From: Desulfosporosinus acidiphilus SJ4
GTDB taxonomy: Bacteria > Bacillota > Desulfitobacteriia > Desulfitobacteriales > Desulfitobacteriaceae
Direction of reading: 5' to 3'
Length of the DNA stretch: 64,000 nucleotides
NCBI RefSeq assembly: GCF_000255115.2
Contig: NC_018068.1
Span: 2,389,977 to 2,453,976 of the forward strand
Shown here: positions 1,789 through 28,625 of the stretch, piece after piece
Numbering within the stretch: the first letter of the stretch is position 1
Layout of the letters: every line of letters begins with the position of its first letter
The notes under the pieces: model-generated
The model's database searches: none
Told to the model about the DNA's origin: nothing
Seen by the model: the letters and a program-made list of their open reading frames with translations, nothing else
Translations under genes and position numbers: made by a program

Positions 1789-1821
1789 ATAATCAATTCA
1801 AAAGATTTACTTTTATGGTTC

Positions 1822-1863
1822 GAATTCCGAACATTTAATATTGTCATTGGAATTCAGAACATT
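1822..1863. repeat. Direct repeat upstream of aprB copy 1
   Basis: GAATTCCGAACATT at 1822-1835 and GAATTCAGAACATT at 1850-1863 match at 13 of 14 bases with a 28-base period. A looser third echo (AATTC then GAACATT, split by about ten bases) follows at roughly 1869-1892. It may be a regulator site for the apr1 promoter; no equivalent is seen before aprB copy 2. The rest of the 1789-2187 gap is AT-rich and holds the weak minus-strand ORF described separately. Confidence 0.4.
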
Positions 1864-1959
1864 GTACTAATTCTGTACAGAGGGAACATTCTCTAATATC
1901 CAAGTGATTTAGTTAATTGTGATCTCTGTATAGAATTACATTTATTTACTTCTGGTATT

Positions 1960-2064
1960 TTATAAAAGGAGGGATGCATAAGTAATTTGATAAACTCCTG
2001 TAGAGCTACCTCCTAGAAATGTAACGAATGCCAGTAAAGCCAAGACATAATTCTGAGACATCAT
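1960..2064 (-). CDS. Possible 34-residue hydrophobic peptide
   Basis: On the minus strand an ATGATG at 2064 opens a 34-codon frame (starts MMSQNYVLALLAFVTFLGG) that would form one transmembrane helix. A weak AAGGG lies about seven bases upstream. It is antisense to the aprB1 leader. I do not recognise a family. A competing signal exists on the plus strand, an AAAAGGAGGG at 1965-1973 followed by ATG and only two more codons. Existence of the gene is uncertain. Confidence 0.22.
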   Translation of the reverse strand: MMSQNYVLALLAFVTFLGGSSTGVYQITYASLLL

Positions 2065-2187
2065 GTTAATACCCTTAATTTATTCAAGTTATCGATCCAA
2101 AACTTGTCTTTATGTTAATAAGCATAATTATTGTATGAAACACTATGCAGACAATATTTTAAATTTAAAATGATGGAGGTTTAACAA

Positions 2188-2631
2188 ATGCCAAGTTTTG
2201 TAATTGCAGAAAAGTGTGACGGATGCAAAGGGCAAGATAAAACAGCTTGCATGTATGCATGCCCAAATGACCTGATGTTTTTAGACAAAGAAAGAATGAA
2301 AGCTGTAAACTTAGATCCAAGCCAATGCTGGGAGTGCTTATGCTGCGTTAAAGCTTGTCCGCAACAAGCTATGGACCTTCGCGGATATGCAGATTTCGTT
2401 CCCCTCGGCGCTTCCTGCGTACCTCTCCGTGGTTCTGACAGCATCATGTGGACTGTTAAGTTCCGCAATGGCATGACCAAACGCTTTAAGTTCCCCATCC
2501 GTACAACTGAAGAAGGTTCCGCTGTACCCGATGGAGGTTTTATTGAAGAAAACACAGATATCAACAGTCTTAATTTATTCAGTGAACCTTCATCCTTAAA
2601 GTTACCGGCTGTTTGGACTTATCAAAAATAA
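2188..2631 (+). CDS. aprB: Adenylylsulfate reductase beta subunit, copy 1
   Basis: This 147-residue protein is the electron-transfer subunit of dissimilatory APS reductase, a cytoplasmic enzyme that reduces APS to sulfite and AMP. The two 4Fe-4S clusters are visible as CDGCKGQDKTACMYACP (from residue 10) and CWECLCCVKACP (about residues 48-59). The C-terminal tail (from about residue 110) matches the Apr family. A GGAGG lies 7 bases before the ATG. It is nearly identical to the copy at 12155, but silent and C-terminal differences have built up, for example FIEENTDINSLNLFSEP here against FVEANTDINSIELFTEP there. Its partner aprA downstream is frameshifted, so this AprB may have to pair with the AprA from the second locus. 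Confidence 0.95.
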   Translation: MPSFVIAEKCDGCKGQDKTACMYACPNDLMFLDKERMKAVNLDPSQCWECLCCVKACPQQAMDLRGYADFVPLGASCVPLRGSDSIMWTVKFRNGMTKRFKFPIRTTEEGSAVPDGGFIEENTDINSLNLFSEPSSLKLPAVWTYQK

Positions 2632-2677
2632 TCTCTTGAAAACATGCAATAAGGAATAAATAGGGAGGTTAAAATCA

Positions 2678-4571
2678 ATGCCAATGAACTTTGAAACAGT
2701 AGAAGTAACAACCGACCTTCTGATCATCGGAGGCGGAATGGGAGCCTGCGGCGCAGCTGTAGAAGCAGCTTACTGGGGACAAAAAACACGGACTTAAAGT
2801 AACCTTAGTTGATAAAGCATCAATGCCGCGTTCCGGTGCAGTCGGAATGGGATTGTCCGCTATTAACCTTTATGTTGGTCTTGCAGAAGGCAGAAATACT
2901 GTTCAAGACTATGTCCGCTACGTTAAAGGCGATATGATGGGAATTGCTCGTGATGACTTAGTCGCTAACATCGCTCGTCACGTTGACAGCTCCGTGCACA
3001 TGTTTGAAAAATGGGGTCTTCCTTTGTGGAAAGACGAAGAAGGCAACTATGTTCACGAAGGAAAATGGCAACTGATGATCAGCGGTGAATCCTATAAAGT
3101 TATCGTTGCTGAAGCTGCTAAGACTGCTTTAGGCGAAGAAAACATTTATGAGAGAGTTTTCATCACTGAGCCCCTCTTAAAAGACGGTAAATGCGTAGGA
3201 GCTGTTGGCTTCAGTGTTCGTGAGAACAAATTCTATGTCTTCAAAGCAAAAGCAACCTTGTGTGCAATGGGCGGAACGGTTGGTGTCTTCAAACCTAAAT
3301 CCACAGGTGAAGGTGCCGGACGTTCATGGTATCCTCCATTCTCCACCGGTTCATCCGCTTACTTCACCATGAAGGCTGGAGCAGAGATGAGCAGCCAAGA
3401 AGTACGCTTTGTACCGATTCGTTTTAAAGACGCTTATGGTCCTGTTGGAGCTTGGTTCTTACTCTTCAAATCCCGCGCAACCAATGCTTTGGGTGAAAAC
3501 TACATGGAAACCCGCGCCGATGAGCTGAAAAAATTTGGCGTCTACGGTTCCATTAAACCAATTCCTGCAAACCTTCGTAACCATCTGGGGTTATTAGACG
3601 TTCAAGAAGGTAAAGGACCTCTCTTCATGCGTACAGAAGAAGCTATTTCCAATCTGGCCAAAGCGTATGAAGGAGACGAAAAAGCCTTCAAGAAGAAAAT
3701 GAAATCCTTAGAGAATGAAGCATGGGAAGACTTCCTCGATATGACGATTGCACAAGCTTTACTTTGGGCAGCAACCAACGTTCAGCCTGAAGAAAGATCT
3801 TCTGAAATCGCAGCAGCAGAGCCTTACTTCATCAGCTCTCACTCCGGTTCTTCAGGAGCATGGATTTCCGGTCCGGAAGACCTCTCCGCTGGAACAGACT
3901 ACTTCTGGGGTTATGCTAACATGACCACCGTTCCTGGCCTCTTTGCAGCAGGGGACGCATCCGGAAACTGCCCGCACAAATTCTCCTCAGGAACTCACGC
4001 AGAAGGACGTATTGCAGGAAAGTCAGCTTGCAAATATATCTTAGAGAACAACACACTTCTCGAAGTTGAGCCTTCTGTGATTGACGAAATGAAAGCCATC
4101 ACTTACAAACCGCTGGAAATCTATGAGCAATATAAAGATTTCAGTACCGATCCACAAGTTAACCCGAACTATATTCTTCCGAAACAGTTTATGTTCCGTT
4201 TACAAAAACTGATGGATGAGTATGTTGGCGGAGCTAACGTATATTTCTGCATGAACCAAGCATCCTTAGACAGAGCAGCAGAACTCTTTGAATTCCTCAA
4301 AGAAGACTCTGAAAAACTGGCAGCCAATGACATTTATGAATTGCTGAGAGTTTGGGAAAACAAACACAGAATGTGGCAAGCCGAATCCCACTTGAAAGCA
4401 GTCACCTTCCGTGAAGAGACCCGTTGGCCCGGATACTATATCAGAACAGACATACCAACTCTTGACGAAGAGAACTGGCATTGTTTCGTCAACATGAAAT
4501 GGGATCCACAAACCAAAGAGTGGTCTGTCTTCAAACGTCCGGTTATTGATATGTTTGATGTTAAATTTTAA
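2678..4571 (+). pseudogene. aprA: Adenylylsulfate reductase alpha, copy 1, frameshifted
   Basis: The start corresponds to the ATG of the intact copy at 12634, with the same AGGGAGG ribosome binding site. One extra A at base 2779 (GGGGAC here, GGGGC in the intact copy) shifts the frame after residue 34, giving TAA at 2795-2797 and a product of about 39 residues. The rest of the gene, from an internal ATG at 2823, is open and appears identical to copy 2 over almost its whole length. The insertion is not in the neighbouring A6 run, so a simple homopolymer error is less obvious, but an assembly or sequencing error remains possible. The FAD-binding GGGMGACGAA motif is upstream of the lesion, so an internally started product would lack its FAD-binding N-terminus. 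Confidence 0.85.
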
Positions 4572-5582: not shown

Positions 5583-5828
5583 GCAATATAAGATCTTAAT
5601 CGCATTCATATTGACGTATTATGACTTCAGTGCTAATCTAATTTGTGAGAAAATTAATTAAGTCGAGTAATTTTAATAGGTTATTTTAATATGTTCTGGT
5701 GTAATTTACTGAGTTATCTTAATGTAGTTTGTCGAATTTTTTTAATATACTTATAAATTTTTTTTAAAATAGTTTGTGTAATTTGTTACGATTAAATATT
5801 AAGTCTTGCTTTGAAGTAAAGAAAACTT

Positions 5829-14770: not shown

Positions 14771-15052
14771 ATCATCACACTCAACTCATTAGACATAACA
14801 CCTGGCATGTAGATCTACCGAAAATCTCTGAAACAAACTAGTGTGATACTCTCCAGCGGAGAGTATCGGGATTGCGAGAAGAGGCCGCTGGCCTTGGAGA
14901 ATAAGAGAATGAAGCTTATCATCACACTGAAACTCATTAGGGATACACTTGCAGAGTGGATTGGCCGAGTGTACATGAAGCTAAACATGTGCGATACTCT
15001 CCACGGGACACTATCGGGATTGCGAGAAGGGACCTCCTGTGCCAAAGGCTAA
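14771..15052. repeat. Two imperfect tandem units of about 147 bp
   Basis: Unit 1 starts at 14771 (ATCATCACACTCAACTCATT) and unit 2 at 14918 (ATCATCACACTGAAACTCATT). Each ends in GATACTCTCC, a hairpin, then TATCGGGATTGCGAGAAG. In unit 1 the hairpin is a perfect 10-bp stem (GATACTCTCC AGC GGAGAGTATC); in unit 2 it is imperfect. The frames across it show no conserved protein, so I read this as repeat or structured RNA. Confidence 0.6.
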
Positions 15053-15465: not shown

Positions 15466-15509
15466 TTGATTACGACCATATTGACTCGGAATACTCACGG
15501 TGTTAATCT
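15466..15509 (+). promoter_or_regulatory. Promoter with shared box (module copy 1)
   Basis: TTGAT (15466) - TACGACCATA - TTGACT (15481-15486) is followed after 17 bases by TAATCT (15504-15509). The upstream box matches four others in this region, but here the second half-site itself is the -35 hexamer, so the box sits 11 bp (one turn) closer to the -10 than in the others. The split chromate-type transporter begins 420 bases downstream; 15510-15929 shows no gene. Confidence 0.5.
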
Positions 15510-15929
15510 TAAGTCATAAATTCGATGTAAATACCAATGAGCATTGCAATGTGCCTATTATAACAAAGATAATGAATAATGAATGTATTTCAGCCGACAA
15601 TATAATTGACATCTAATAGACATCAATATGTTTTGAAAGATCATGCAGATATGTTCGCAATTAAGATTCGATATTTTTACTTTGGTTTATCCCTCAAAAT
15701 TTTAATCTTTTTCACTAATCCTAGCTAGCAGGATTAAATTTATAGATTATCAAGTGAAAATTATCTCTATTACAAGCCATGGATTATTCTGGGTTATATG
15801 TCAATAACTTTGAAACCTACTGTCTGACATAGATGTATTCAACTAGGATAGGGGGGATAATTCAAAGAACACAATTAAATTTATAAAATTAATCCTGTAT
15901 AACTTGTTTTTATAATAGGGGGAGTTAAA

Positions 15930-16538
15930 GTGGAAAAGGAAAAGAGGAAAATTACGATCAAGTTTCTATATGAGATTTTTATGGTTTTTTTCAAAATATC
16001 TCCGATTACTTTTGGCGGGGGATTCGCCATGATTCCTATCATGGAGGAAGAAATTGTTCATAAAAAACAATGGATAGATCGAGAGAACCTTGTTGATATC
16101 TTTGCAGTTTCTCAGTCGTTACCTGGCGCAATTGCTGTCAATTCAGCTACATTTGTAGGTTATCAGATCGGTGGAATAGCTGGTGCTTTGTCTGCTTTGT
16201 TAGGAATTGTCATTCCAACCTTCGCGATTATTATAGTATTAGGTGCTTTACTAGGTTCTTTCCAACATAATATCTATGTTCAAGCAGCATTGAAAGGAAT
16301 TAGGCCTATTGTAGTAGCATTGATCGCATCGGCGGCTTACAAAATGGGGCTTGTTTCCGTAGTAGATAAAATATGTGCTGCCCTGTGTGCCGTTTGTATA
16401 ATTTCTCTCTTACTTTTCAAAAGTCTTAATTTAATCTTAGTCATCTTTTTAGGAGCTTTTGCCGGAATTGTAATTGTAAAAGTTAAGGATCAGCAAAATA
16501 AACGACTATCGCATAAGAAAGCTGGTGAAACGCTATGA
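15930..16538 (+). CDS. Chromate-type transporter, first half (CHR domain)
   Basis: This 202-residue membrane protein starts at GTG with AGGGGGA seven bases upstream. It has the CHR domain hallmark FKISPITFGGGFAMIPIMEEE near residues 22-42 and the PGAIAVNSATFVGYQIGG motif near residue 70, followed by hydrophobic helices. Short-chain CHR proteins work as a pair of half-size subunits that export chromate or related anions; substrate here is unknown, and sulfate-like anions are plausible in this context. The stop overlaps the next gene by four bases (ATGA), which indicates translational coupling. Confidence 0.88.
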   Translation: MEKEKRKITIKFLYEIFMVFFKISPITFGGGFAMIPIMEEEIVHKKQWIDRENLVDIFAVSQSLPGAIAVNSATFVGYQIGGIAGALSALLGIVIPTFAIIIVLGALLGSFQHNIYVQAALKGIRPIVVALIASAAYKMGLVSVVDKICAALCAVCIISLLLFKSLNLILVIFLGAFAGIVIVKVKDQQNKRLSHKKAGETL

Positions 16539-17074
16539 GTTTATATTTAGAAATGATAATAACATTTTTTAAACTCGGGCTTGTAAGTTTCGGGGGAGGA
16601 TATGCCATGATCCCCCTCATCCAGACGGAAATGCAAAGTCATCACTGGCTCGATATCAGTCAATTCACAGACATGATTGCTGTATCGGCCATGGCACCTG
16701 GACCAATTGCCAGTAATACGTCAACGATTGTTGGTTATAAATTAGCCGGACTGACGGGTGCTGTAGTTGCATGTATCGGAGTGACGTTACCATCATTACT
16801 GCTAATTCTTCTGGTAGGGAAATTATTCTTTGCATTCCAAGAACATCCTTATGTAAAAGCTGCCTTTTATGGACTGAGACCAACAATTGTAGGCGTTATA
16901 GCTTTTGCAGCCATTAAGTTTGCAATCAGCAATGGAATTGTCGGCGGAAGCCAATTCATAGATATTAGAAGCAGCATATTATTAGTCGCCGCTTTCATTT
17001 TATTAATAAAGACAAAGATACATCCGGCTTATCTTATCCTTGGATCAGGAATCATCGGCGTTTTTATATTTTAG
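16535..17074 (+). CDS. Chromate-type transporter, second half (CHR domain)
   Basis: This 179-residue partner of the preceding gene overlaps it by four bases. It repeats the CHR signature FKLGLVSFGGGYAMIPLIQTE near residues 11-31 and APGPIASNTSTIVGYKLAG near residue 54, with about five hydrophobic segments. It and its neighbour are expected to form a heterodimeric exporter in the cytoplasmic membrane. Hairpins at 17162-17231 lie downstream. Confidence 0.88.
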   Translation: MSLYLEMIITFFKLGLVSFGGGYAMIPLIQTEMQSHHWLDISQFTDMIAVSAMAPGPIASNTSTIVGYKLAGLTGAVVACIGVTLPSLLLILLVGKLFFAFQEHPYVKAAFYGLRPTIVGVIAFAAIKFAISNGIVGGSQFIDIRSSILLVAAFILLIKTKIHPAYLILGSGIIGVFIF

Positions 17075-17161
17075 GCCAATCAATATAAATATTCACTGAA
17101 TGCCTGAATGCCTAAGTTATGAGAATTGAGTGAACTCGTACAGCTAAAGCTGAACATCGGG

Positions 17162-17231
17162 GCTTCGGTTGGGGACTCTACCCCCACCGAAGCAGAGACC
17201 GGGGACCACTCCCACTTATAGAAGTGGGAGT
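17162..17231. repeat. Paired hairpins, possible IS200/IS605-type end remnant
   Basis: The first hairpin is GCTTCGGT...GGGG paired with CCCC...ACCGAAGC (17162-17193). The second is ACTCCCACTT, loop ATAG, AAGTGGGAGT (17208-17231), the inverse of the 4595-4620 hairpin core. Such tandem hairpins resemble the right ends of IS200/IS605 elements, but no transposase or TnpB is present. They could equally terminate the transporter operon. 17232-17544 shows no gene, only a likely promoter with TATAAT near 17440. Confidence 0.35.
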
Positions 17232-17544
17232 CTCACGATTGGATGAGAATACGAAAGACGGAACGAACTCGTAGGAACACGTAGTAACTCTACAAGTCAG
17301 AAGGCAATTTAACAGCTACAGTTTAGCTTCAGTATGGTCCGAGATCTCTGGAGCTTCTTCTTTTACTATGACTCTTTTTTAATAGTTATTTACAAATAAG
17401 GTTCTATCTTATATTGTTCTTCGTTATTTAAATATGCTATAATTTTTAAAATAGGAAATGACTTAAATCATATGGAAAGAGATGGGGCATTGTGTCCTGG
17501 GAAAATTGACGGTTATTCCTCCACATTGTGAAAGAGGTGTTCGT

Positions 17545-18183
17545 ATGAATGATTCGAAATTTAAAGTATTACTTTATTCAGATGGGTCTCATCAAGCTTT
17601 TTCTGCTGCAGTATATACAGCTACCCTTTTAAGGAAAATACCAAATATGGAGCTGACAATTCTGCAAGTACAAGAAAGTGATGATGGAAATGAAGAGACA
17701 AAATATAGTTGGTTAGAGTTACGACCAAAATATAAGCGTTATCATTGGGGTCGTTTAACCGAAAATGATTATAGGTGGATTGATTTCTGGCCCGAGAATC
17801 CTGATCCTGAATGGATGAAGAGTATACTCAAAGAAACAGAAATTACTTCAGAGAGTCAAAAAAAATACGCGCAAATCTTAAAAAAGACAAATGAAATCTA
17901 TCAGAAACGCTCAAGCGATGTTAAAGAGCAAATTCTGTATAAAAAAACAAGTCTTAATGAAACTGCAAGTATTTCCGAAACGGTTAAAATGATCATAGAT
18001 TATGCGACACAAAATCCTTTTCAATTAATTGTTATGGGAACACGTGGCCTTTCAACTATAAAAGGGCTAATGTTCGGTAGTTTAGCTCATACAGTTCTTG
18101 ACAAATCACCCCTTCCCGTATTATTGATTAAAAAGCTTCCTGAAGATTTTATTGATAACTACCTGGCATCTTCAGATTTATAA
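17545..18183 (+). CDS. Universal stress protein family, paralogue 1
   Basis: The ATG at 17545 (MNDSKFKVLLYSDGS) is chosen because GAAAGAGG precedes it and the paralogues share this N-terminus. At 212 residues it is longer than usual Usp proteins (about 140-150): an extra charged, Trp/Tyr-rich segment (YSWLELRPKYKRYHWGR and onward) sits between the first alpha/beta unit and the C-terminal half. The ATP-binding motif G-2x-G-9x-GS is complete in GTRGLSTIKGLMFGS. Probable soluble nucleotide-binding stress protein. One of four paralogues within 8 kb. Confidence 0.85.
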   Translation: MNDSKFKVLLYSDGSHQAFSAAVYTATLLRKIPNMELTILQVQESDDGNEETKYSWLELRPKYKRYHWGRLTENDYRWIDFWPENPDPEWMKSILKETEITSESQKKYAQILKKTNEIYQKRSSDVKEQILYKKTSLNETASISETVKMIIDYATQNPFQLIVMGTRGLSTIKGLMFGSLAHTVLDKSPLPVLLIKKLPEDFIDNYLASSDL

Positions 18184-18265
18184 AGAAATTCACGGAATAA
18201 TATTTAATATAAAATATTCTAATTTTGGAAATTAGAGAACGTTAATTTAATTGTAAATATTCTTT

Positions 18266-18299
18266 AAAAGACTTTGGATTTTAATCTAAGGTCTTTTTT
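18266..18299 (+). terminator. Terminator of Usp paralogue 1
   Basis: AAAAGACTTTGGATT pairs with AATCTAAGGTCTTTT with minor mismatches, followed by T6. Confidence 0.8.
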
Positions 18300-18309
18300 C
18301 AATCTCTGA

Positions 18310-18395
18310 AGGTATAACTATCGGTCATATACTATTCTCGAACATAAGTTCAACTAACCTGCCAACGGCTACGGCGATCAGCGGACGAACCTATC
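18310..18395. repeat. Dispersed intergenic repeat (copy R3)
   Basis: It contains GAACATAAGTTCAACTAACCTGCC, here split as ACATAAGT, CAACT and ACCTGCC, then AACGGCTACGGCGA, AGCGGACGA and CCTATCAT, in the same order as in R2 at 14690-14772. Non-coding. Confidence 0.55.
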
Positions 18396-18497
18396 ATAAA
18401 ACTGCTATATATTACGCATACACCTATTGTGTGAAGATTAGCCAAGTGTCTCTGAAGACTTGGATAATTTTGGAGGAATCATTTATAATTAATTATA

Positions 18498-18552
18498 TTG
18501 ATTATGAACATATTGATTTGATATAGACACAGTGCGAATACAATGCTAATCT
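18498..18552 (+). promoter_or_regulatory. Promoter with shared box (module copy 2)
   Basis: TTGAT-TATGAACATA-TTGAT at 18498-18517, then TAGACA (18524-18529), 17 bases, TAATCT (18547-18552). From box start to -35 is 26 bases, the same as in copies 3, 4 and 5. A strong AGGAGGTGA follows at 18581, but the only ORF from it is eight codons; the region aligns loosely with the small-ORF leader at 25.6 kb and may be a decayed copy. Confidence 0.6.
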
Positions 18553-18704
18553 GTACTTGTTAGTAAAGTCACAAGTAAATAGGAGGTGAACAAGCCCGTT
18601 TTACAAGAGTAATATGTATATGTTAAACTAACTTGCGTGGTTAGTTGGTTAGAATCATATCCATTATAAAAGCACAGTATTCTAATCTAATTTATAAAAA
18701 AAAA

Positions 18705-18735
18705 CAGCCTTGCAAAGGCTGCTAAGAAATTTGAC
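18705..18735 (+). repeat. Hairpin plus CTAAGAAATTTGAC element (copy a)
   Basis: CAGCCTT-GCA-AAGGCTG (18705-18721) forms a perfect 7-bp stem, followed directly by CTAAGAAATTTGAC. Three further copies at 21039, 25767 and 32381 keep the tail but change both sides of the stem. Confidence 0.6.
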
Positions 18736-18892
18736 ATGTTTATTATATCATAAATCCAAAGAAATACTGAAGAATAAAATTAGAAAATATTAAAGCAGAT
18801 TTAACAAAAAATAATAGTATGGCTTATCTACAATTCCTAAATGATTAGTGCATAATATCACTAGCTTATTTTTAGGAAAGGAGCTATTTCTT

Positions 18893-19564
18893 ATGACAAA
18901 TGTAAACTTTAACGTTTTGCTATATTCTGATGGATCAACACAAACTTTTAATGCTGCAGTTTATACTGCGAATCTTTTTAATGATATTCCAAATATGAAA
19001 TTAACTGTTCTTCAAATACAAGAAAGTCATGAGCGTTTTATGGGCACAGAATTCAGTTGGGCTGAATTAAGGCGTAAGTACAAAAGAATGTATTGGGAAA
19101 ACGAATCTGATCTTAGCTGGTCCCAGACATATCTTAAACCACCTAAAGACGAATGGTTTAAAAGAATCTTTACAATGGATGACGATCCCAGTGAACACGA
19201 CGCGAGGTTGGTTTCAAAAACTAATCGAATATTCGTCGAAAATTCCTCTAATATTAATCACCAAATTTTATTTACCAATATAAATAAAGCAGATATATCT
19301 GATACAGCTGATTTAATTCTTGATTATTCAAGGCGTAACCCCTTTAATCTAATTATTCTGGGTGCTGATGGTTTATCAATGTTTAAAGGCTTAATTTTTG
19401 GTGATTTAGCTCACAAAGTACAAGTTAAGTCTCCGATTCCAGTATTAATGATCAAGAAACTATCTCAGAAGTTCATTAATAATTACTTGTCAGATGCAAA
19501 GGAAACTGTCACCAGTCAAATGCCACATATAATTAGTGGCCATGCCAGTAGTATATTCTTTTAA
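18893..19564 (+). CDS. Universal stress protein family, paralogue 2
   Basis: The start at 18893 (MTNVNFNVLLYSDGS) has AGGAAAGGAG upstream. The 223-residue protein carries the same long middle insert as paralogue 1 (FSWAELRRKYKRMYW). The nucleotide-binding motif is altered: GADGLSMFKGLIFGD has Asp where the family has Ser (G-2x-G-9x-GS), so ATP binding may be lost or changed. The C-terminus has an extra tail of about 25 residues beyond the IKKLSQKFINNYL end shared by all four. The next gene, of unknown family, follows after about 75 bases. Confidence 0.85.
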   Translation: MTNVNFNVLLYSDGSTQTFNAAVYTANLFNDIPNMKLTVLQIQESHERFMGTEFSWAELRRKYKRMYWENESDLSWSQTYLKPPKDEWFKRIFTMDDDPSEHDARLVSKTNRIFVENSSNINHQILFTNINKADISDTADLILDYSRRNPFNLIILGADGLSMFKGLIFGDLAHKVQVKSPIPVLMIKKLSQKFINNYLSDAKETVTSQMPHIISGHASSIFF

Positions 19565-19639
19565 TCAAATAGGATAGTACGTTTAATAATTTCTCTTTGA
19601 TTCTTTCCGTAGATGACAGAAACGAAAGAAGGGATTATA

Positions 19640-20269
19640 TTGTCCGCGATAAAGGCAACCGATGAAACATTAAAATCAAATCAAGTAGAGGACGTTGAAA
19701 GGGAGATAGGAGACAAATCTTATCCAATATGGCTGTTAGTTAACCCAAAACATCCTGCAGTTCGTCATAATATTTGGGCTCCAGTTCTTGCAGAGATACA
19801 AGATAAGGTATTTAGAGATTTGCATGTCCGAATAGATACGACGAAAATATATCTTAGAAAGGTTGTAGGTGACAGCCGAATCATACCTAATACCTTAAAT
19901 TGGTGGGGAACTGAGCTAGCAAAGGAAATAGATCTTTTTAGGGAAATTGTTGTGGAATATCAACCTAAAATCTTAATTACATTTGGCTCTTTTCCCTTTG
20001 AATTTGTCCGTAGAGTCTATGAAATATATCCGGAAAAAGGACCGAAATTTTGGGGTACAGCAAATTTAGGCGATGAATTTGGCAAAGCCATCGAGAATTT
20101 CGACATAACGAAAACCAATCGTATTCCCTTGTTGCGCAGAGTTGTAAAAAGCGGAAGATTTATTGAAGATCATAACTATTACGGAGAGAACTATTTTCAA
20201 TATGTTGGCAAAAAAATAGCAGAGAAGATTATAGCTAATAAGGATAATCTGGACATTTGGATAGAATAA
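19640..20269 (+). CDS. Unknown family A, paralogue 1
   Basis: I do not recognise this family. The TTG start at 19640 is preferred over ATG at 19613 because AGAAGGG lies six bases before it and the resulting N-terminus matches the length of the two paralogues (21181, 28005). The 209-residue soluble protein has conserved blocks shared by all three: YPIWLLVNPKHPAVRHNIW near residue 28, NTLNWWG near residue 90, PKILITFGSFPFEF near residue 112, and a C-terminal NYFQYVGKKIAEKI. The alternation of beta strands and the P-K-hydrophobic-T-F-G block followed by a helix recalls uracil-DNA-glycosylase-like folds, but this is a guess. Always found here next to Usp or transporter genes. Confidence 0.75.
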   Translation: MSAIKATDETLKSNQVEDVEREIGDKSYPIWLLVNPKHPAVRHNIWAPVLAEIQDKVFRDLHVRIDTTKIYLRKVVGDSRIIPNTLNWWGTELAKEIDLFREIVVEYQPKILITFGSFPFEFVRRVYEIYPEKGPKFWGTANLGDEFGKAIENFDITKTNRIPLLRRVVKSGRFIEDHNYYGENYFQYVGKKIAEKIIANKDNLDIWIE

Positions 20270-20335
20270 TTAATGCTAAGGATTTTGCAACTAATCCTAA
20301 CTAAATTATACTTAATCCGTACTAATTCATAAAGA

Positions 20336-20368
20336 AACCCCTGAAGCCTATTCAGGGTTATTTTTTTA
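20336..20368 (+). terminator. Terminator after family A paralogue 1
   Basis: AACCCCTGAA pairs with TTCAGGGTT with one bulged C, followed after one A by T7. Confidence 0.85.
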
Positions 20369-20520
20369 CTGTCAGAATGTATAAGATTTCGTAGTATCCT
20401 TACTTTTCCTCTCCTCAAGGATAAATGCAACTCGGCAGTTGCTTACGCAATGACGATCACTGACGAGTTTATATCTACGCCGGCATCTCATTACTCCGGT
20501 ATTTTGAATTGCTTAGTGTC
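20369..20520. repeat. Dispersed intergenic repeat (copy R4)
   Basis: It starts with CTGTCAGAATG right after a terminator, then GGATAAATGCAACT, GGCAGTTGCTTACGC and GACGAGTTTATATC. The order resembles R2 and R3 and the 61.3 kb copy, but similarity is weaker. Bases 20521-20899 are AT-rich with no gene seen. Confidence 0.45.
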
Positions 20521-20899
20521 TTGGTCAGACTTCAATGCTCTCAAACTAGAGAATTAATCATAATTAGAGATTTTTAGTTTAGCCGCAGATAATTTTCTTG
20601 CTCAGTAAAAAATATATTTTGAAATTAATACTAGATGATTAAGAATTATTATTGCACTTTTTAATTATAGGGCAATCTTAACTTAAAGAATTACTTGTGC
20701 GTTTGAGAAATTCATGAATACTTTAAGCGTTTAAATTCAAGATTAATAAAAGCTTTGATTTTCAAGCGTTTTCAACGAATTACTAATGCTTAAAACAATT
20801 GAAATGCGTCTATTTAGGAAATCGATCCCTTAGGAGCAAAATTAGCCCTTTATATACTTCAACAAATAGATATCGGGCAACTCGTATCAATAGGAAAAT

Positions 20900-20954
20900 C
20901 TGATTACGATTATATTGCTTAGTTATAGACATTATCCTTAGGCAATGATAATCT
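20900..20954 (+). promoter_or_regulatory. Promoter with shared box (module copy 3)
   Basis: CTGAT-TACGATTATA-TTGCT (20900-20919), TAGACA (20926-20931), 17 bases, TAATCT (20949-20954). Spacing from box to -35 is 26 as in copies 2, 4 and 5. A GGAGGGAGA follows near 20988 without a convincing ORF. It lies upstream of family A paralogue 2. Confidence 0.6.
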
Positions 20955-21038
20955 TTAATTGTGAGGATAAGTACATGTGAGAGTGAGGAGGGAGAACATT
21001 TATCCTGGAAGATAAACTAGAGATGCTTGGTATGAGCT

Positions 21039-21065
21039 AACCTAAGGGTTGCTAAGAAATTTGAC
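21039..21065 (+). repeat. Hairpin plus CTAAGAAATTTGAC element (copy b)
   Basis: AACC-TAAG-GGTT (21039-21050) is followed by GCTAAGAAATTTGAC. The stem sequence differs from copy a while pairing is kept. Confidence 0.5.
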
Positions 21066-21180
21066 CGGTAAAATAAGAATAGTTCACTCAAGGGATAATA
21101 TTGCTGCAAGACAACGAGCAACTGCAACAAGTTAAGAATTGATAATCGCTGCCGCAAATTTTTGGGAGGAGGGAGTCAAT

Positions 21181-21810
21181 ATGTCTAACTTAACACTTAA
21201 TAGATATATTCCTGCCGTTGAAAAGATTAAACAAGAGACCGGAGAGAGAGAGTATCCTATTTGGCTGCTTGTAAACCCAAAACACCCAGCAGTTCGTCAT
21301 AATATTTGGACTCCAGTATTAGCTGAGATACAGGACAAAGTATTTCGAGTTATACACTCTAGAATCGATACTTCGGATATATATATCAGGAATGCTGTTA
21401 AAGTAAGTGAACTGGTTCCTAATACTTTAAATTGGTGGGGAGTAGACGTTGCTGAAGAAATTGATATTTTTAAAGAAATTGTTAATGAGCATAAACCTAA
21501 AATAATAATTTCCTTTGGTGCGTTTCCATTTGAATTTTTAAGAAGGGCTTATCAGGTTAAACCTGAAAAAGGTCCTAAATTTTGGAGTACAGCAAACTTG
21601 GGCCAAGAATTTGGAAAAGCGATTAAAAATTTTGATATTACAAAGACAAATAGGATTCCATTACTTCGTCGAGTCGTTGAAACCGCTAAATTCACGAAAG
21701 ATCCTATTTATGTAGGTCGTCAAGACGGCGAGACATATTTCCATTATGTTGGAACTCAAATTGCAGATAAAATTATTGAGCATAAAGATAGTTTGAATAT
21801 TTGGATATAA
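21181..21810 (+). CDS. Unknown family A, paralogue 2
   Basis: The ATG at 21181 has GGGAGGAGGGAG upstream. This 209-residue protein shares with its two paralogues the blocks YPIWLLVNPKHPAVRHNIW, NTLNWWG, a P-K-I-I-I-S-F-G-AFPFEF strand-loop, and TKTNRIPLLRRVVE before the C-terminal helix. Near the C-terminus it has a short insertion (VGRQDGET) before YFHYVGTQIADKI. No signal peptide or membrane segment. Function unknown. It stands as a single-gene unit between promoter module copy 3 and a terminator. Confidence 0.75.
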   Translation: MSNLTLNRYIPAVEKIKQETGEREYPIWLLVNPKHPAVRHNIWTPVLAEIQDKVFRVIHSRIDTSDIYIRNAVKVSELVPNTLNWWGVDVAEEIDIFKEIVNEHKPKIIISFGAFPFEFLRRAYQVKPEKGPKFWSTANLGQEFGKAIKNFDITKTNRIPLLRRVVETAKFTKDPIYVGRQDGETYFHYVGTQIADKIIEHKDSLNIWI

Positions 21811-21992
21811 GGTTGAGGGAGTACCGATGCAAATCTTAGTGCAAAAAAGAACAATTCAGGATCTTCCAAAACCCCCTATTATTCATCAATCAGAATGGTA
21901 AAGATATTTCCTTGAAAATTAGTCTGCGAAATATCAAGCTTCAATAAGAATATTCTTTGATTGATGAAGACAAAATATCTAAAAATATTAAT

Positions 21993-22070
21993 AAAGACTC
22001 GATGAAGTCTGTAGTGAGTTAAATCCTACAGATTTTTGTTTTAAATAGGACCTGTTCGAGTCTTTTTTTT
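21993..22070 (+). terminator. Two-tier terminator after family A paralogue 2
   Basis: Outer stem AAAGACTCGA (21993-22002) with TCGAGTCTTT (22056-22065), inner stem TCTGTAG with CTACAGA, then T8. Confidence 0.8.
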
Positions 22071-22081
22071 CATAAGTAAAA

Positions 22082-22137
22082 TCGATTATGAACATATTGT
22101 TATCCTATAGACACGAAGCTAAGATAAATGTTACTCT
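22082..22137 (+). promoter_or_regulatory. Promoter with shared box (module copy 4)
   Basis: TCGAT-TATGAACATA-TTGTT (22082-22101), TAGACA (22108-22113), 18 bases, TACTCT (22132-22137). It is followed by AAGGAGG near 22185 without a usable ORF. It lies 165 bases upstream of the TauE/SafE-type gene and is its likely promoter. Confidence 0.6.
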
Positions 22138-22302
22138 GTTTGTGAGAAGACTCACATACTCAAATATCACTATAAGGAGGTTTGAGATAAGCATTTTTCC
22201 ACTGATACTTTAACAACGGTAAATCAAGAAATAAATCACTCTAAGTAATTGAAACCGTTTTGTTTTTAACCGCCGTAATTTGATGTAGGAGGTAAAGAGG
22301 CA

Positions 22303-23229
22303 ATGATTGAAAAATTAGTAACTGATGCCGGCCTGATATATTCTGCAACTAATCTTGCGGTAACTCAAGCAGCCGGCAACCCTGGAATACCATGGTGGGT
22401 ATGGCCGTTGGCTCTACTAGTTACAACTTTCCTGATAGGGATTGTGGCAGCATTAGCGGGTGTAGGCGGAAGTGTTTTGTATGTGCCAATCGTCAGCAGC
22501 TTTTTTCCATTCAATTTTGATTTTATTCGTGGTTCGGGCTTATTTGTTGCCTTAGCATGTTCACTCTCGGCAGCTCCCAAACTCCTTAAAGCGAATCTTG
22601 CAAGCCTGCGTTTAGTTATTCCTTTAGCCTTAATTGCATCATCATCGAGTATTGTAGGTGCCTATTTAGGTCTTGCATTACCCCAAAGTATTCTCAAAAT
22701 TTTACTGGGGCTTTTAATAACCTCTATTGCACTATTGTTTGTTTTTTCAAAGAATAGTGAAATTCCTAAAATCGGACGTCCGGATCCTTTGGCCAAATAT
22801 TTAAATATCGGGGGGGCTTACTTCGAATCTTCCAGTGGTCAGGATATTCAGTGGACTGTCTGGAGACTTCCTCAAGGATTAATACTCTTCGGCTGTATTG
22901 GAATCATTGCAGGGATGTTTGGAATCGGTGCAGGTTGGGCAAATGTTCCAGTTCTTAACTTAGTCTTAGGAGCACCTCTGAAGGTAGCGGTGGGAACTAG
23001 TATGTCGCTTCTGGCGATCACAGATACTTCGGCCGCCTGGATTTATCTGAATCAAGGTGCAGTACTGCCAATGATAACGGTTCCCTCGGTTATTGGGATC
23101 ATGATAGGTTCTCGAGTGGGAGTGAAGATTTTAAATACAGCCAAACCTAAAGCAATTCGTTATATTGTTATACTAATGTTACTGTTTGCTGGCTTAAAAT
23201 CGTTATTAAATGGATTAGGATGGGGGTAA
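22303..23229 (+). CDS. TauE/SafE-family membrane exporter
   Basis: This 308-residue polytopic protein starts at ATG with GGAGGTAAAGAGG upstream. It has two related halves, each with a glycine-rich helix: ALAGVGGSVLYVPIV near residue 47 and MFGIGAGWANVPVLNLVL near residue 205, the duplicated TauE/SafE pattern. A loop of about 45 residues lies between them. Members export or import sulfite, sulfoacetate, taurine-derived or other organosulfur anions. Sulfite export would make sense in a sulfate reducer, but substrate is inferred. A partner membrane gene follows five bases after its stop. Confidence 0.88.
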   Translation: MIEKLVTDAGLIYSATNLAVTQAAGNPGIPWWVWPLALLVTTFLIGIVAALAGVGGSVLYVPIVSSFFPFNFDFIRGSGLFVALACSLSAAPKLLKANLASLRLVIPLALIASSSSIVGAYLGLALPQSILKILLGLLITSIALLFVFSKNSEIPKIGRPDPLAKYLNIGGAYFESSSGQDIQWTVWRLPQGLILFGCIGIIAGMFGIGAGWANVPVLNLVLGAPLKVAVGTSMSLLAITDTSAAWIYLNQGAVLPMITVPSVIGIMIGSRVGVKILNTAKPKAIRYIVILMLLFAGLKSLLNGLGWG

Positions 23230-23234
23230 GAATA

Positions 23235-23711
23235 ATGGGAATTCAAACAGGTGTTACAAGTGCAACTGCGAAAGACGCTGTAAATGCACAAGGGAATGTA
23301 TTGGATAATGTTAAGGTTAGTCCTGAACAGAATATTTATGCGACCATTCTACTCATTTGCTCTTGGGCAGGTATCATAGGAATGCTCATTACTTTTATCG
23401 GTTATATGGCTGGAGCTTTCAGTCCGATCGTCAAACCATCTGATATGCCTCAGTTTTGGGGAATGAATGTTCATCAGTATTTAGCAGCTACTAACGCCCC
23501 AAGTGGATGGAGTTGGCTTGGCTATATCAATCATGGTGACTATATGAACTATGTCGGGTTGGCCTTTTTAGGTATTGTATCAACGTTAGGTTATGTTTCT
23601 TTATTCATCAATTATTTAAGAAAAAAAGATTTAACCTATACCTTAATGGTCAGCTGTGAGATTATAATCATAGTTCTTGCCGCTTCGGGGATATTCCATG
23701 TCGCAGAATAA
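23235..23711 (+). CDS. Membrane protein coupled to the TauE/SafE gene
   Basis: This 158-residue protein has three hydrophobic helices (near residues 34-62, 104-126 and 132-155) and ends in GIFHVAE. The ATG at 23235 lies five bases after the exporter stop, with GGGGG inside the end of that gene as ribosome binding site. Conserved-looking polar blocks are SGWSWLGYINHGDYMNYVG and MPQFWGMNVHQYLAA. It may be an accessory subunit of the exporter, as DUF1634-type small membrane proteins often accompany TauE proteins, but I cannot assign it to that family by eye. Confidence 0.65.
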   Translation: MGIQTGVTSATAKDAVNAQGNVLDNVKVSPEQNIYATILLICSWAGIIGMLITFIGYMAGAFSPIVKPSDMPQFWGMNVHQYLAATNAPSGWSWLGYINHGDYMNYVGLAFLGIVSTLGYVSLFINYLRKKDLTYTLMVSCEIIIIVLAASGIFHVAE

Positions 23712-23856
23712 GGCGATTTTCCTAAATTGCGGATCAACCCACTTAAAATCGGAATAAATAATTTCTAACTATTTTTGGTTTTATTAATCCTCTCATAATC
23801 CTCTCAATTGTGTTACAATAATATGAATATACAAATGCGTAAGAGAGGTTGATGTT

Positions 23857-24435
23857 ATGAATGATTCTCAGTTTAATGTACTTCTTTACTCCGATGGTTC
23901 ACATCAGGCGTTTTCGGCGGCCGTTTATACAGCCACATTATTAGAAAATATGCCAGACATGCATTTAACCGTTTTACGAGTTATTGATAATTCGGAAGCA
24001 CCAGCATTTAAAGCTTATGATTGGACTGACACTTGGCCTGGAACACCTACCTCGGAATGGATGAAGCACGTGCTTTCGGATTCGGACAGTGAAACTGAGA
24101 GAGAATATCATATGATCCTTCGTAAAACCAACCAAATTTTCTTTAATCAAGGATATAACGTTGTTCATAAAGAAATATATACTAAAGGCTCTGGAGATAA
24201 TGCTGCGGATACTACTCACATTGAAGATGTTATTCTTGAATATGCACATACTAATTGCTTTGACTTAATAATTATTGGTACTCGTGGATTATCAAGTTTA
24301 AAAGGCTTAATTTTTGGCAGCTTAGCTCATAATTTGCTCACTAAGTCTACAATACCTGTGATGCTTATAAAAAAACTCCCACAAGAATTTATTGACAGTT
24401 ACTTAGAAAACAAGGAAGACAAAGTATCTATTTAA
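23857..24435 (+). CDS. Universal stress protein family, paralogue 3
   Basis: ATG with AGAGG upstream. The 192-residue protein starts MNDSQFNVLLYSDGSHQAFSAA, close to paralogue 1, but its middle insert is shorter. The ATP-binding motif is complete in GTRGLSSLKGLIFGS. The C-terminus IKKLPQEFIDSYL is shared with paralogues 1 and 4. It has its own promoter region (TTACAAT near 23815) and a weak terminator at 24487. Confidence 0.86.
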   Translation: MNDSQFNVLLYSDGSHQAFSAAVYTATLLENMPDMHLTVLRVIDNSEAPAFKAYDWTDTWPGTPTSEWMKHVLSDSDSETEREYHMILRKTNQIFFNQGYNVVHKEIYTKGSGDNAADTTHIEDVILEYAHTNCFDLIIIGTRGLSSLKGLIFGSLAHNLLTKSTIPVMLIKKLPQEFIDSYLENKEDKVSI

Positions 24436-24486
24436 TGCTGATTAATTTGGCTGGGTTATGGTTAAGTAGTTTAATAAGTCTCAGTT

Positions 24487-24530
24487 AAATGCCTCGAGGA
24501 GAAAACTTAAAATTCTTATTCGGGGCATTT
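24487..24530 (+). terminator. Hairpin after Usp paralogue 3
   Basis: AAATGCCTCGA pairs with TTCGGGGCATTT with one G-T pair. No good T run follows, so it may be weak. Confidence 0.55.
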
Positions 24531-24623
24531 GCCTTTCAGGATAGTTATACGTTTTATTGAGACATCGGCATTCATTAGAATCTCGTAATGGGTTAAGTTT
24601 GTACAATGAAAAGGGGTTTTCAT

Positions 24624-25160
24624 ATGAGCCAGATATTCAAAGTGCTGCTTTACTCCGACGGTTCACGACAGTCATTTTCAGCAGCCGTATATACGGCAGC
24701 TCTCTTAAAAAAAATACCCAATATGTATTTATCAATTGTTGAAGTTCAAGAAAGAGATGAAAGCCATGCTGTTTCAGACGTAAATTGGAGAGACTATTGG
24801 TTTATTAATTCGGCCTCTGAGTGGAAAAGAATTGTGATTGATGATGCAGATCAAGTTGTTAAGAAACATTCCGAAAAAATCCTTCACGAGACCGAAAAAA
24901 TATTCCTAGAGAATGAGAAAAACATTAATTACCAAATCATTTACAGTAACCCTAGTATTTCTGAAACAGTGGAAGCGCTTGTTAGCTACGCTGCTCTGAG
25001 GTCTTTTAGGCTTATCATAATGGGAACGAGAGGACTTACATCGATGCAGGGTCTAATTCTTGGTTGTTTGGCACATAATCTTCTCAATAAGTCTTCAATT
25101 CCAGTTTTGTTAGTAAAAAAGCTTCCACAGGAATTTATTGATAGTTTTTGCCTTAAATAG
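24624..25160 (+). CDS. Universal stress protein family, paralogue 4
   Basis: The start at ATG 24624 (MSQIFKVLLYSDGS) is preferred to 24606 because AAAAGGGG lies seven bases before it. At 178 residues it has the shortest middle insert of the four. The nucleotide motif reads GTRGLTSMQGLILGC, with Cys in place of the final Ser of G-2x-G-9x-GS, so nucleotide binding may be changed. It ends IKKLPQEFIDS-like (VKKLPQEFIDSFC). Confidence 0.85.
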   Translation: MSQIFKVLLYSDGSRQSFSAAVYTAALLKKIPNMYLSIVEVQERDESHAVSDVNWRDYWFINSASEWKRIVIDDADQVVKKHSEKILHETEKIFLENEKNINYQIIYSNPSISETVEALVSYAALRSFRLIIMGTRGLTSMQGLILGCLAHNLLNKSSIPVLLVKKLPQEFIDSFCLK

Positions 25161-25212
25161 TTTTGCCTTTAAAAGTCTTTGTCATAAATAGTTTTTGCCT
25201 GAAATAATTAGT

Positions 25213-25251
25213 GTCCCGAAAAGAGTAAATTCTTTTTCGGGACTTTTTTTT
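25213..25251 (+). terminator. Terminator of Usp paralogue 4
   Basis: GTCCCGAAAAGA pairs with TCTTTTTCGGGAC, followed by T8. A classic intrinsic terminator. 25252-25512 shows no gene. Confidence 0.9.
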
Positions 25252-25512
25252 GTGGGCCATTCCTTCGGCATCGGTAATAATTATTATCTAACTACCGCAT
25301 TTTTATAAGACTGTTGGAAAGTAGGTGTCATGATATCCAATCGATTAGTTGTTTAGTGTAGAAAAAGAGCATTTTTTGACAGAAAGACATATAAGGCATA
25401 TGTTCAAATTTTTCTATAGATAAAAAACTATTTACTAATAAGTGAAACAGCAAGATAGATTAAAAAGACGCTTTGTAAAATGCTTTTTATACCATATTTA
25501 CCATTGAGTTAA

Positions 25513-25567
25513 TTGATGGTGAGCATATCGATTTCCCATAGACAGAATAAAAACATAATGTTAACCT
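25513..25567 (+). promoter_or_regulatory. Promoter with shared box (module copy 5)
   Basis: TTGAT-GGTGAGCATA-TCGAT (25513-25532), TAGACA (25539-25544), 17 bases, TAACCT (25562-25567). Here the promoter is followed by GGAGGTGAG and an intact small ORF at 25611, then a second ORF, the hairpin element c, and the SulP gene. Confidence 0.6.
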
Positions 25568-25610
25568 TTTATTAAAGTTAGTGAAATATTTAATTTGGAG
25601 GTGAGAACCT

Positions 25611-25712: not shown

Positions 25713-25799
25713 ATGCGAAAGCAAAAACGGAAGAAACTTGATTCAAGGATTAAGAAAATAAAAAAAGCAGCCTCGAAGGCCGCTAAAAAATGTGACTAA
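25713..25799 (+). CDS. 28-residue highly basic peptide (tentative)
   Basis: The ATG immediately follows the TAG of the membrane peptide, and GGAGGGAGCGAG lies about ten bases upstream. The product (starts MRKQKRKKLDSRIKKIKKAA) has 14 Lys/Arg. Its last codons coincide with the hairpin element c. The three other copies of that element could encode similar tails, but the paired changes there fit RNA structure better than peptide conservation. Whether this is translated is open. Confidence 0.35.
   Translation: MRKQKRKKLDSRIKKIKKAASKAAKKCD
25767..25796 (+). repeat. Hairpin plus CTAAAAAATGTGAC element (copy c)
   Basis: GCAGCCT-CG-AAGGCCGC pairs with one mismatch, followed by TAAAAAATGTGAC, a two-base variant of the tail in copies a, b and d. 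Confidence 0.5.
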
Positions 25800-27945: not shown

Positions 27946-28004
27946 ATCACCTAAATAGGTGAGTGTCCGATAAATTTCAAATTGTTTGAAAGGTGGGATT
28001 CAAA

Positions 28005-28625
28005 ATGACGAGCCTTACGCGCAATAATTATATTTCACAGACTGAAAAGCTCAAGCGGGATACCGGAGATAAAAGTTATCCTATATGGTTACTGGTAAAT
28101 CCTAAATATCCTGCAGTTCGGCATCAAATTTGGACACCTGTACTTGCGGAAATACAAGACAAAGTATTCCGAGAGATTCAAACCAGAATAGATACAACGA
28201 ATATATATATCCGAAATGCGGTAACGGACAGCGGGATTGTTCCAAATACCTTAAATTGGTGGGGGATTGAAGTTGGGGAAGAAATTGAGGCATTTCGAGA
28301 AATTGTTTTAGAATACAAGCCGAAAGTAATTATCACCTTTGGTGCCTTTCCCTATGAATTCTTACGTCGCGTTTTTAGAATTAAACCTGAAAAAGGCCCT
28401 GTATATTGGGGGAATGCTATTTTAGGTGAAGAATTTGGTAAGGCTATTAAAAATTTTGATATAAACAAAATAAATCGCATTCCTTTACTGCATCGAGTAA
28501 ATGCCAGCGGCAAATTTATTGAAAATCAAAATTATTTTGGTGAGAGTTATTTTCAATATGTTGGAACTAGAATTGCGGAAAAGATCATCGAGAACAAAAA
28601 TGAACTTAATATCTGGATAAAATAG
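28005..28625 (+). CDS. Unknown family A, paralogue 3
   Basis: ATG at 28005 with AAAGGTGGG upstream. The 206-residue protein has the family blocks YPIWLLVNPKYPAVRHQIW, NTLNWWG, PKVIITFGAFPYEFLRR, INRIPLLHRVNASGKF and YFQYVGTRIAEKI. A conserved His appears here in IPLLHR where the other two have Arg. It lies 60 bases after SulP with no terminator between, so the pair is probably co-transcribed. Function unknown; the recurrent link to anion transport and Usp genes suggests a stress or metabolite role. Confidence 0.75.
   Translation: MTSLTRNNYISQTEKLKRDTGDKSYPIWLLVNPKYPAVRHQIWTPVLAEIQDKVFREIQTRIDTTNIYIRNAVTDSGIVPNTLNWWGIEVGEEIEAFREIVLEYKPKVIITFGAFPYEFLRRVFRIKPEKGPVYWGNAILGEEFGKAIKNFDINKINRIPLLHRVNASGKFIENQNYFGESYFQYVGTRIAEKIIENKNELNIWIK

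What the first reader, a model, noticed from the sequence alone, without database searches (positions are those of the whole stretch)
15466..25567. Five promoters share a two-part box at fixed distance: a local regulon
TTGAT-N10-TTGAT-like boxes at 15466, 18498, 20900, 22082 and 25513 each precede a promoter with TAGACA and TAATCT-like hexamers. In four copies box-to-minus-35 is exactly 26 bases. In the first, the box is 11 bases closer and its second half serves as -35, one helical turn shift. They stand before the chromate-type transporter, Usp2, family A-2, TauE/SafE and SulP genes. This looks like one unknown activator controlling an anion/stress regulon.
Basis: partly seen in the sequence, partly recalled or inferred. 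Interest (0 to 1): 0.75.

Follow-up and report, generated by a model that had tools for sequence, protein, structure and literature searches.

The report
Shared promoter of Desulfosporosinus sulfate-respiration genes
The five look-alike promoters are real and belong to a genus-wide set of switches that probably turn sulfate uptake and sulfate respiration genes on and off together in Desulfosporosinus bacteria, by a regulator that has not been identified.

Summary
Five copies of a 15-bp-period direct repeat (ATATTGATT-N6-ATATTGACT) stand before promoters in the window, where chance gives none. The element is not local: all three SulP sulfate-permease genes of this genome carry it. It recurs in 28 of 30 sampled same-genus (Desulfosporosinus) genomes and in a sister genus (2 of 2), but in no other of 22 genera of the order. 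Its "shifted" form (box 11 bp, one helical turn, closer; TTGACT as -35) is a second conserved class, which drives qmoABC-sat-aprBA (window 5592-5661 and all 10 relatives read), etfBA, and sat in the sister genus. So the regulon is sulfate respiration plus sulfate/anion uptake, with Usp and uncharacterised proteins. Further shared parts: an extended, atypical -10 (TGnTAMYCT), a TTGTGA-N6-TCACAA-like palindrome at the start site in part of the copies, and an orphan Shine-Dalgarno in the leader (55% against 11-14%), like STAB-SD. Most likely mechanism: an unidentified dimeric activator at -40.5 or -51.5 recruits sigma-A polymerase. Three candidate regulators tested do not fit by distribution. No start site or binding was measured.

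The parts
5596..5639 (+).
   Evidence: R3 match 5593-5659, 52.4 bits; conserved upstream of qmoA in L134-L143
6010..7257 (+). qmoA, first gene of the class B operon (then 7262, 9512, sat 10898, aprB 12155, aprA 12634)
   Evidence: ORF list; Pfam for sat and aprA; qmoA/B/C and aprB assigned from sequence and gene order
15466..15509 (+). Class B promoter of the chromate-transporter genes: box 15466-15485, -35 TTGACT 15481-15486, -10 TAATCT 15504-15509
   Evidence: R3 58.5 bits; same site in L049, L050, L051
15930..17074 (+). split chromate transporter (15930-16538, 16535-17074)
   Evidence: PF02417 twice
18498..18552 (+). Class A promoter: box 18498-18517, TAGACA 18524-18529, extended -10 TAATCT 18547-18552
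   Evidence: R2 69.0 bits; zero mismatches
18557..18574 (+). start-site palindrome TTGTTAGTAAAGTCACAA
   Evidence: 1 mismatch to TTGTGA-N6-TCACAA, 0.27 matches expected in the whole window
18581..18589 (+). orphan Shine-Dalgarno AGGAGGTGA in the leader, no ORF follows
18893..20269 (+). Usp2 and A1 genes behind the 18498 promoter
   Evidence: PF00582; A1 without Pfam match
20900..20954 (+). Class A promoter: box 20900-20919, TAGACA 20926-20931, -10 TAATCT 20949-20954
   Evidence: R2 63.3 bits
21181..21810 (+). A2 gene (209 aa, uracil-DNA-glycosylase-like fold predicted)
22082..22137 (+). Class A promoter: box 22082-22101, TAGACA 22108-22113, -10 TACTCT 22132-22137 (spacer 18)
   Evidence: R2 52.8 bits
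22140..22157 (+). start-site palindrome TTGTGAGAAGACTCACAT
22174..22181 (+). orphan Shine-Dalgarno AAGGAGGT in the leader
22303..23711 (+). TauE/SafE (TSUP) transporter and a 163-aa protein, apparently a membrane protein by sequence
   Evidence: PF01925
25513..25567 (+). Class A promoter: box 25513-25532, TAGACA 25539-25544, -10 TAACCT 25562-25567
   Evidence: R2 51.2 bits
25611..25712 (+). 33-codon ORF directly behind the SulP promoter, with good Shine-Dalgarno 25597-25604; conserved in L049, L050, L051
26116..27945 (+). SulP sulfate permease with STAS domain
   Evidence: PF00916 334.7 bits, one of exactly 3 in the genome

Best explanation
The five boxes are binding sites of one transcription activator, acting as a dimer on two direct half-sites 15 bp apart (ATATTGATT-N6-ATATTGACT), which switches on the sulfate-respiration programme of Desulfosporosinus and a sister genus. 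It occupies one of two positions exactly one helical turn apart. In class B (qmo-sat-apr, chrA, etfBA, some sulP) it is centred near -40.5 and overlaps a good -35 (TTGACT). In class A (sulP, tauE, Usp, A-family genes) it is centred near -51.5, just upstream of a fixed, non-consensus -35 (TAGACA). In both it compensates for a weak but extended -10 (TGnTAMYCT, C at position 5). Many copies also carry a start-site palindrome TTGTGA-N6-TCACAA, the consensus recorded for sulfate-reduction operators in Desulfovibrio, probably a repressor site or 5' hairpin. The leader often carries an orphan Shine-Dalgarno that probably stabilises the mRNA. Shown by sequence: the sites, their geometry, conservation, target genes and leader features. 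Inferred: activation, dimer binding, positions relative to the start site, sigma-A, repression and stabilisation. The regulator is unknown.
For: Five window sites against 0.00 by chance. Only a handful of strong sites in the 4.99-Mb genome, and all 3 of its SulP genes carry one. 78 of 79 class A sites in 22 loci are intergenic although 72% of the sequence is coding, and all lie within 700 bp upstream of a same-strand ORF. Present in 28/30 genus genomes and 2/2 of a sister genus, 2 of 22 genera of the order. An exact scan of 84,980 species returns only Desulfosporosinus records and one unnamed Bacillota MAG. Class B is fixed before qmoA in 11 genomes, before etfBA in clade 2 and before sat in the sister genus. 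Transporter targets are SulP, DASS, CitMHS, TSUP and ChrA. Direct repeat scores 4.3 against 1.9 bits for the best inverted repeat. The -35/-10 spacer is 17 +/- 1 in all class A sites. Orphan Shine-Dalgarno 55% against 14% shuffled and 11% in other intergenic sites.
Against: No transcription start, binding or expression was measured, and no regulator was found that tracks the motif. For a simple CRP/FNR-type activator a centre at -51.5 is unusual (own knowledge). A fixed -35 and -10 hexamer in every copy could equally mean an alternative sigma factor. The palindrome is good in only about half of the copies and lost before the window's SulP gene. One weak site (L004 10418) lacks a good -10.
Confidence: 0.72

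Rival explanations
1. An alternative or modified sigma factor recognises the promoter. TAGACA/TTGACT and TGnTAMYCT are its hexamers and the box is an UP-like or accessory element.
For: C at -10 position 5 is 97-100% conserved and TAGACA is nearly invariant in class A, whereas another promoter-like stretch of these genomes, before rex, has the ordinary TATAAT.
Against: Class B -35 is the sigma-A consensus TTGACT, and the extended -10 TGN is a sigma-A feature. The box is as conserved as the hexamers (25.5 bits of about 69) and moves by exactly one helical turn, which suits a bound protein rather than a sigma factor.
Confidence: 0.12
2. The regulon is run mainly by a redox or Crp/Fnr-type repressor (Rex, HcpR-like or the Crp protein next to etfBA) at the start-site palindrome, and the upstream box is secondary.
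For: TTGTGA-N6-TCACAA is the consensus recorded upstream of sat and apsAB in Desulfovibrio (PMC545781). Rex is encoded in all 8 genomes searched. A Crp protein with the R-E recognition pair expected for TTGTGA (rule of PMC1274295) lies beside the class B etfBA operon in several Desulfosporosinus.
Against: The palindrome is degenerate or absent in about half of the copies while the box is always there. Rex's own upstream regions have no such site. The Crp protein is as common in genera without the box.
Confidence: 0.1
3. The sites are copies left by duplication of genes together with their promoters, not an actively used regulon.
For: Usp, A and SulP genes in the cluster are paralogues, and the promoter regions align over 60 bp or more.
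Against: The element precedes unrelated families (qmoA, sat, etfB, DASS, ChrA, carbonic anhydrase). Within orthologues the box is held while surrounding sequence diverges, and it is kept in a second genus.
Confidence: 0.04

Closest known systems
HcpR/Rex-type operators of sulfate-reduction genes in Desulfovibrio (TTGTGA-N6-TCACAA before sat and apsAB)
   Same: The same palindrome consensus lies at the promoter start of many copies here, and core targets overlap (sat, apr).
   Different: Here the palindrome is optional and the universal element is a different, upstream 15-bp-period direct repeat absent from that description. The bacteria belong to a different phylum.
FNR/CRP class II activator sites (TTGAT-N4-ATCAA near -41.5)
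   Same: Half-site letters TTGAT/TTGAC and, in class B, a centre near -40.5 overlapping the -35.
   Different: The halves are direct repeats, not inverted, with 10 instead of 4 bases between the TTGAT cores; class A is centred at -51.5.
STAB-SD 5' mRNA stabiliser of Bacillus thuringiensis cry3A
   Same: Shine-Dalgarno sequence near the transcript's 5' end that directs no translation (26 of 38 cases here have no ORF of 15 codons or more).
   Different: Seen here by sequence only, repeated across a whole regulon; stabilisation not tested.
Direct-repeat sites of PhoB/OmpR-type or LytTR-type response regulators
   Same: Two direct repeats upstream of the -35.
   Different: Repeat period is 15 bp, not about 11 or 21-22 (periods of those families from own knowledge).

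Membership tests
FNR/CRP box | inverted repeat TTGAT-N4-ATCAA or TGTGA-N6-TCACA at the activating site | tested here: not met
   Upstream box is a direct repeat, 4.3 bits against 1.9 for the best inverted repeat
FNR/CRP box | activator position near -41.5 or -61.5 | tested here: inconclusive
   Class B about -40.5, class A about -51.5, inferred from the -10; start sites not mapped
HcpR/Rex operator | TTGTGA-N6-TCACAA overlapping the promoter | tested here: inconclusive
   Two window promoters within 1 mismatch; good in roughly half of the distinct leaders
HcpR/Rex operator | bound by Rex or HcpR | not testable with these tools
   Rex gene present; no binding data
sigma-54 promoter with NtrC-type activator | GG-N10-GC core at -24/-12 | tested here: not met
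   The nearest match in the consensus is GC-N10-GC with weakly conserved first pair (52% and 59%); sigma-70-type hexamers at 17 +/- 1 instead
NtrC-type response regulator as the box regulator | ortholog present wherever the box is | tested here: not met
   91% ortholog only in the G007 clade among the 8 genomes searched; the own genome has a 61% homologue, and G007 holds such a 61% homologue besides its ortholog; GAFTGA kept in most copies
Crp protein beside etfBA as the box regulator | distribution matches that of the box | tested here: not met
   Present in motif-negative genera g3, g5, g7, g8 and g20
LysR beside qmoA in the sister genus as the box regulator | distribution matches that of the box | tested here: not met
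   Many paralogues, also in motif-negative genera
STAB-SD leader | 5' Shine-Dalgarno without a start codon | tested here: met
   55% of distinct class A leaders against 14% shuffled and 11% other intergenic; 26 of 38 without an ORF of 15 aa or more
STAB-SD leader | stabilises the mRNA | not testable with these tools
   needs half-life measurement

The most novel reading that the evidence does not exclude
A so far undescribed activator, recognising a 15-bp-period direct repeat at two positions one helical turn apart, acts as the master switch of sulfate respiration (uptake, activation, electron transfer) in Gram-positive Desulfosporosinus and a sister genus.
Probability: 0.5. Interest if true: 0.72.

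Novelty: new variant of a known kind. Interest (0 to 1): 0.6.

Why it matters
None of the papers found here describes the transcriptional control of sulfate respiration in Desulfosporosinus; Marietou 2018 lists its transporters beside sat/aprAB without a regulatory element. A single conserved element shared by sat, qmo, apr, etf and all sulfate permeases gives a bait to fish out the regulator, a list of functionally linked unknown genes (Usp, A family, 163-aa protein), and a predictive tool for which of many candidate transporters serve sulfate respiration.

Tried and rejected
The NtrC-type response regulator and histidine kinase that sit in the regulon of one clade were rejected as the general activator. 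The Crp/Fnr protein near etfBA and the LysR near qmoA were not supported by distribution, though neither is excluded. Rex autoregulation gave no operator to compare. An RNA-only reading of the start-site palindrome is undecided: mean fold z -1.2, 47% of leaders below -1. Rfam finds no known RNA in the window. An FNR inverted-repeat reading of the box and a sigma-54 reading were rejected on the logos. The box before the 3759840 locus was first taken as a Usp promoter; it faces an EmrB-type transporter instead.

Full report
CHECK. The five boxes are present at 15466, 18498, 20900, 22082 and 25513. The combined pattern has 5 matches at up to 3 mismatches in the window and none in any of 100 shuffles. 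Leave-one-out matrices rank every full copy above all background. The first copy is 11 bases closer and uses TTGACT as its -35. The -35/-10 spacer is 17 (18 at 22082) and every -10 is extended (TGN).

NOT LOCAL. With a model of box plus -35, the 4.99-Mb genome (99.99% complete) has six strong hits: four in the window, one before each of two distant SulP genes. The genome has exactly three SulP genes, so all three carry the element. A longer model of 42 sites adds a short Usp (C3:1663515), a carbonic anhydrase (2013350), and class B sites before an EmrB-type transporter (3759840), chrA and qmoA.

CONSERVATION. Of 74 genomes of the order, 30 have the element: 28 of 30 in the genus and 2 of 2 in one sister genus, none in the other 20 genera. 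An exact consensus scan over 84,980 species returned six records, five named Desulfosporosinus (metallidurans, acididurans, FKB, PR, MAG_BO295) and one Bacillota MAG. A 4.93-Mb chromosome and three SulP genes (three are listed for D. acidiphilus SJ4 in PMC5840216) suggest D. acidiphilus; this species is inferred, not shown. 78 of 79 class A sites in 22 loci are intergenic and all lie within 700 bp upstream of a same-strand ORF.

TWO CLASSES. Class A: TTGATTAYGAGCATATTGATTTGCTATAGACA-N17-TAATCT. Class B: TTAATTATGGCCATATTGACTTATTATGACCTCAGTGCTAATCT, the same box shifted 11 bp towards the -10. Class B is found before qmoA in the window (5592-5661) and in all ten relatives read, before a second qmoABC-etfBA operon just upstream of the window (L178), before etfBA in another clade, before sat in the sister genus, and before SulP in clade 2. 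In the window's clade the SulP gene nearest apr has class A instead, so both classes serve the same kind of gene. The box is a direct repeat with a 15-bp period.

PROMOTER AND LEADER. TGnTAMYCT is nearly invariant, with C at position 5 in 97% of class A and in all class B sites of the model. Right after it comes TTGTGAG, in many copies part of TTGTGA-N6-TCACA. That is the consensus which Rodionov et al. 2004 recorded before Desulfovibrio sat and apsAB (PMC545781); Rex was later reported there as a repressor of sat, as cited in PMC11451228. In the leader, roughly 20-45 bases after the -10, lies a Shine-Dalgarno that mostly serves no ORF: 55% of distinct leaders against 14% in shuffles and 11% in other intergenic places; 26 of 38 have no ORF of 15 codons or more. 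This resembles STAB-SD (PMC4113751).

TARGETS. Sulfate or anion transport: SulP, DASS, CitMHS, TSUP (two kinds), chromate transporter. Sulfate reduction: qmoABC-sat-aprBA, sat, etfBA. Others: Usp proteins, CBS-domain-like proteins (by sequence), the A family, a kinase and NtrC-type regulator in one clade, carbonic anhydrase, EmrB. PMC5840216 had already proposed some of these SulP, DASS and TSUP genes as sulfate-respiration transporters from gene neighbourhood. In Acididesulfobacillus a sulfate permease rises 17-fold under nitrate (PMC10949509); whether it carries this element was not tested.

MECHANISM. Shown: sites, spacing, conservation, targets, leader features. Inferred: a dimeric activator on the direct repeat contacting polymerase from -40.5 or, one turn further, -51.5, needed because the -10 is poor and, in class A, the -35 is off consensus; a redox-type repressor or a hairpin at the start; and leader-based mRNA stability. 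The activator is unknown. Three candidates were tested by distribution and not supported. A sigma-factor explanation remains (0.12).

NOVELTY. Regulons of this kind are known; this element and regulon were not found in the papers searched, which cover open-access literature only. I rate it a new variant of a known kind, interest 0.6.

Noticed in passing
window 19613-20269, 21181-21810, 27993-28625: The 'A family' (about 210 aa, no Pfam or NCBIfam match, no sequence match in the PDB) has a confident AlphaFold model (pLDDT 81) whose nearest solved folds are uracil-DNA glycosylases (Foldseek E 6e-5, TM about 0.4-0.5). The gene at 27993, unnamed by Pfam, is a third copy.
   Followed up: partly
window 25-4571 and locus L178: A second, earlier set of sulfate-reduction genes lies just upstream: a qmoABC copy, etfBA, an HdrD-like Fe-S protein (its end is window 25-1788), then AprB-like (2188-2631) and AprA-like (2823-4571) genes. 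The set has its own class B promoter.
   Followed up: partly
window 18714-18735, 21044-21065, 25775-25796: A 22-nt repeat AAAGGCTGCTAAGAAATTTGAC occurs in three of the leaders (82-91% identical), partly inside a terminator-like hairpin; unexplained.
   Followed up: no
window 14835-15034: Two 52-nt repeats (83% identical, 148 bp apart) behind aprA.
   Followed up: no
L056 6162 and 11556; L036: In one clade an NtrC-type response regulator and a HAMP histidine kinase lie inside the cluster behind boxes of this regulon; a possible feed-forward sigma-54 branch.
   Followed up: partly
L147 3590-4402, L179 9228-9941: A highly conserved Crp/Fnr protein sits beside the class B etfBA operon (other clade) or 4 kb before an HdrD-like gene with a weak class B site (own clade); predicted TTGTGA-type specificity.
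   Followed up: partly
L004 10418 (-) and L147 10387-10797: Related small proteins (159 and 136 aa, no Pfam match) follow a degenerate box with poor -10 (L004) or the HdrD-like gene (L147); one may be a decayed member of the regulon.
   Followed up: no
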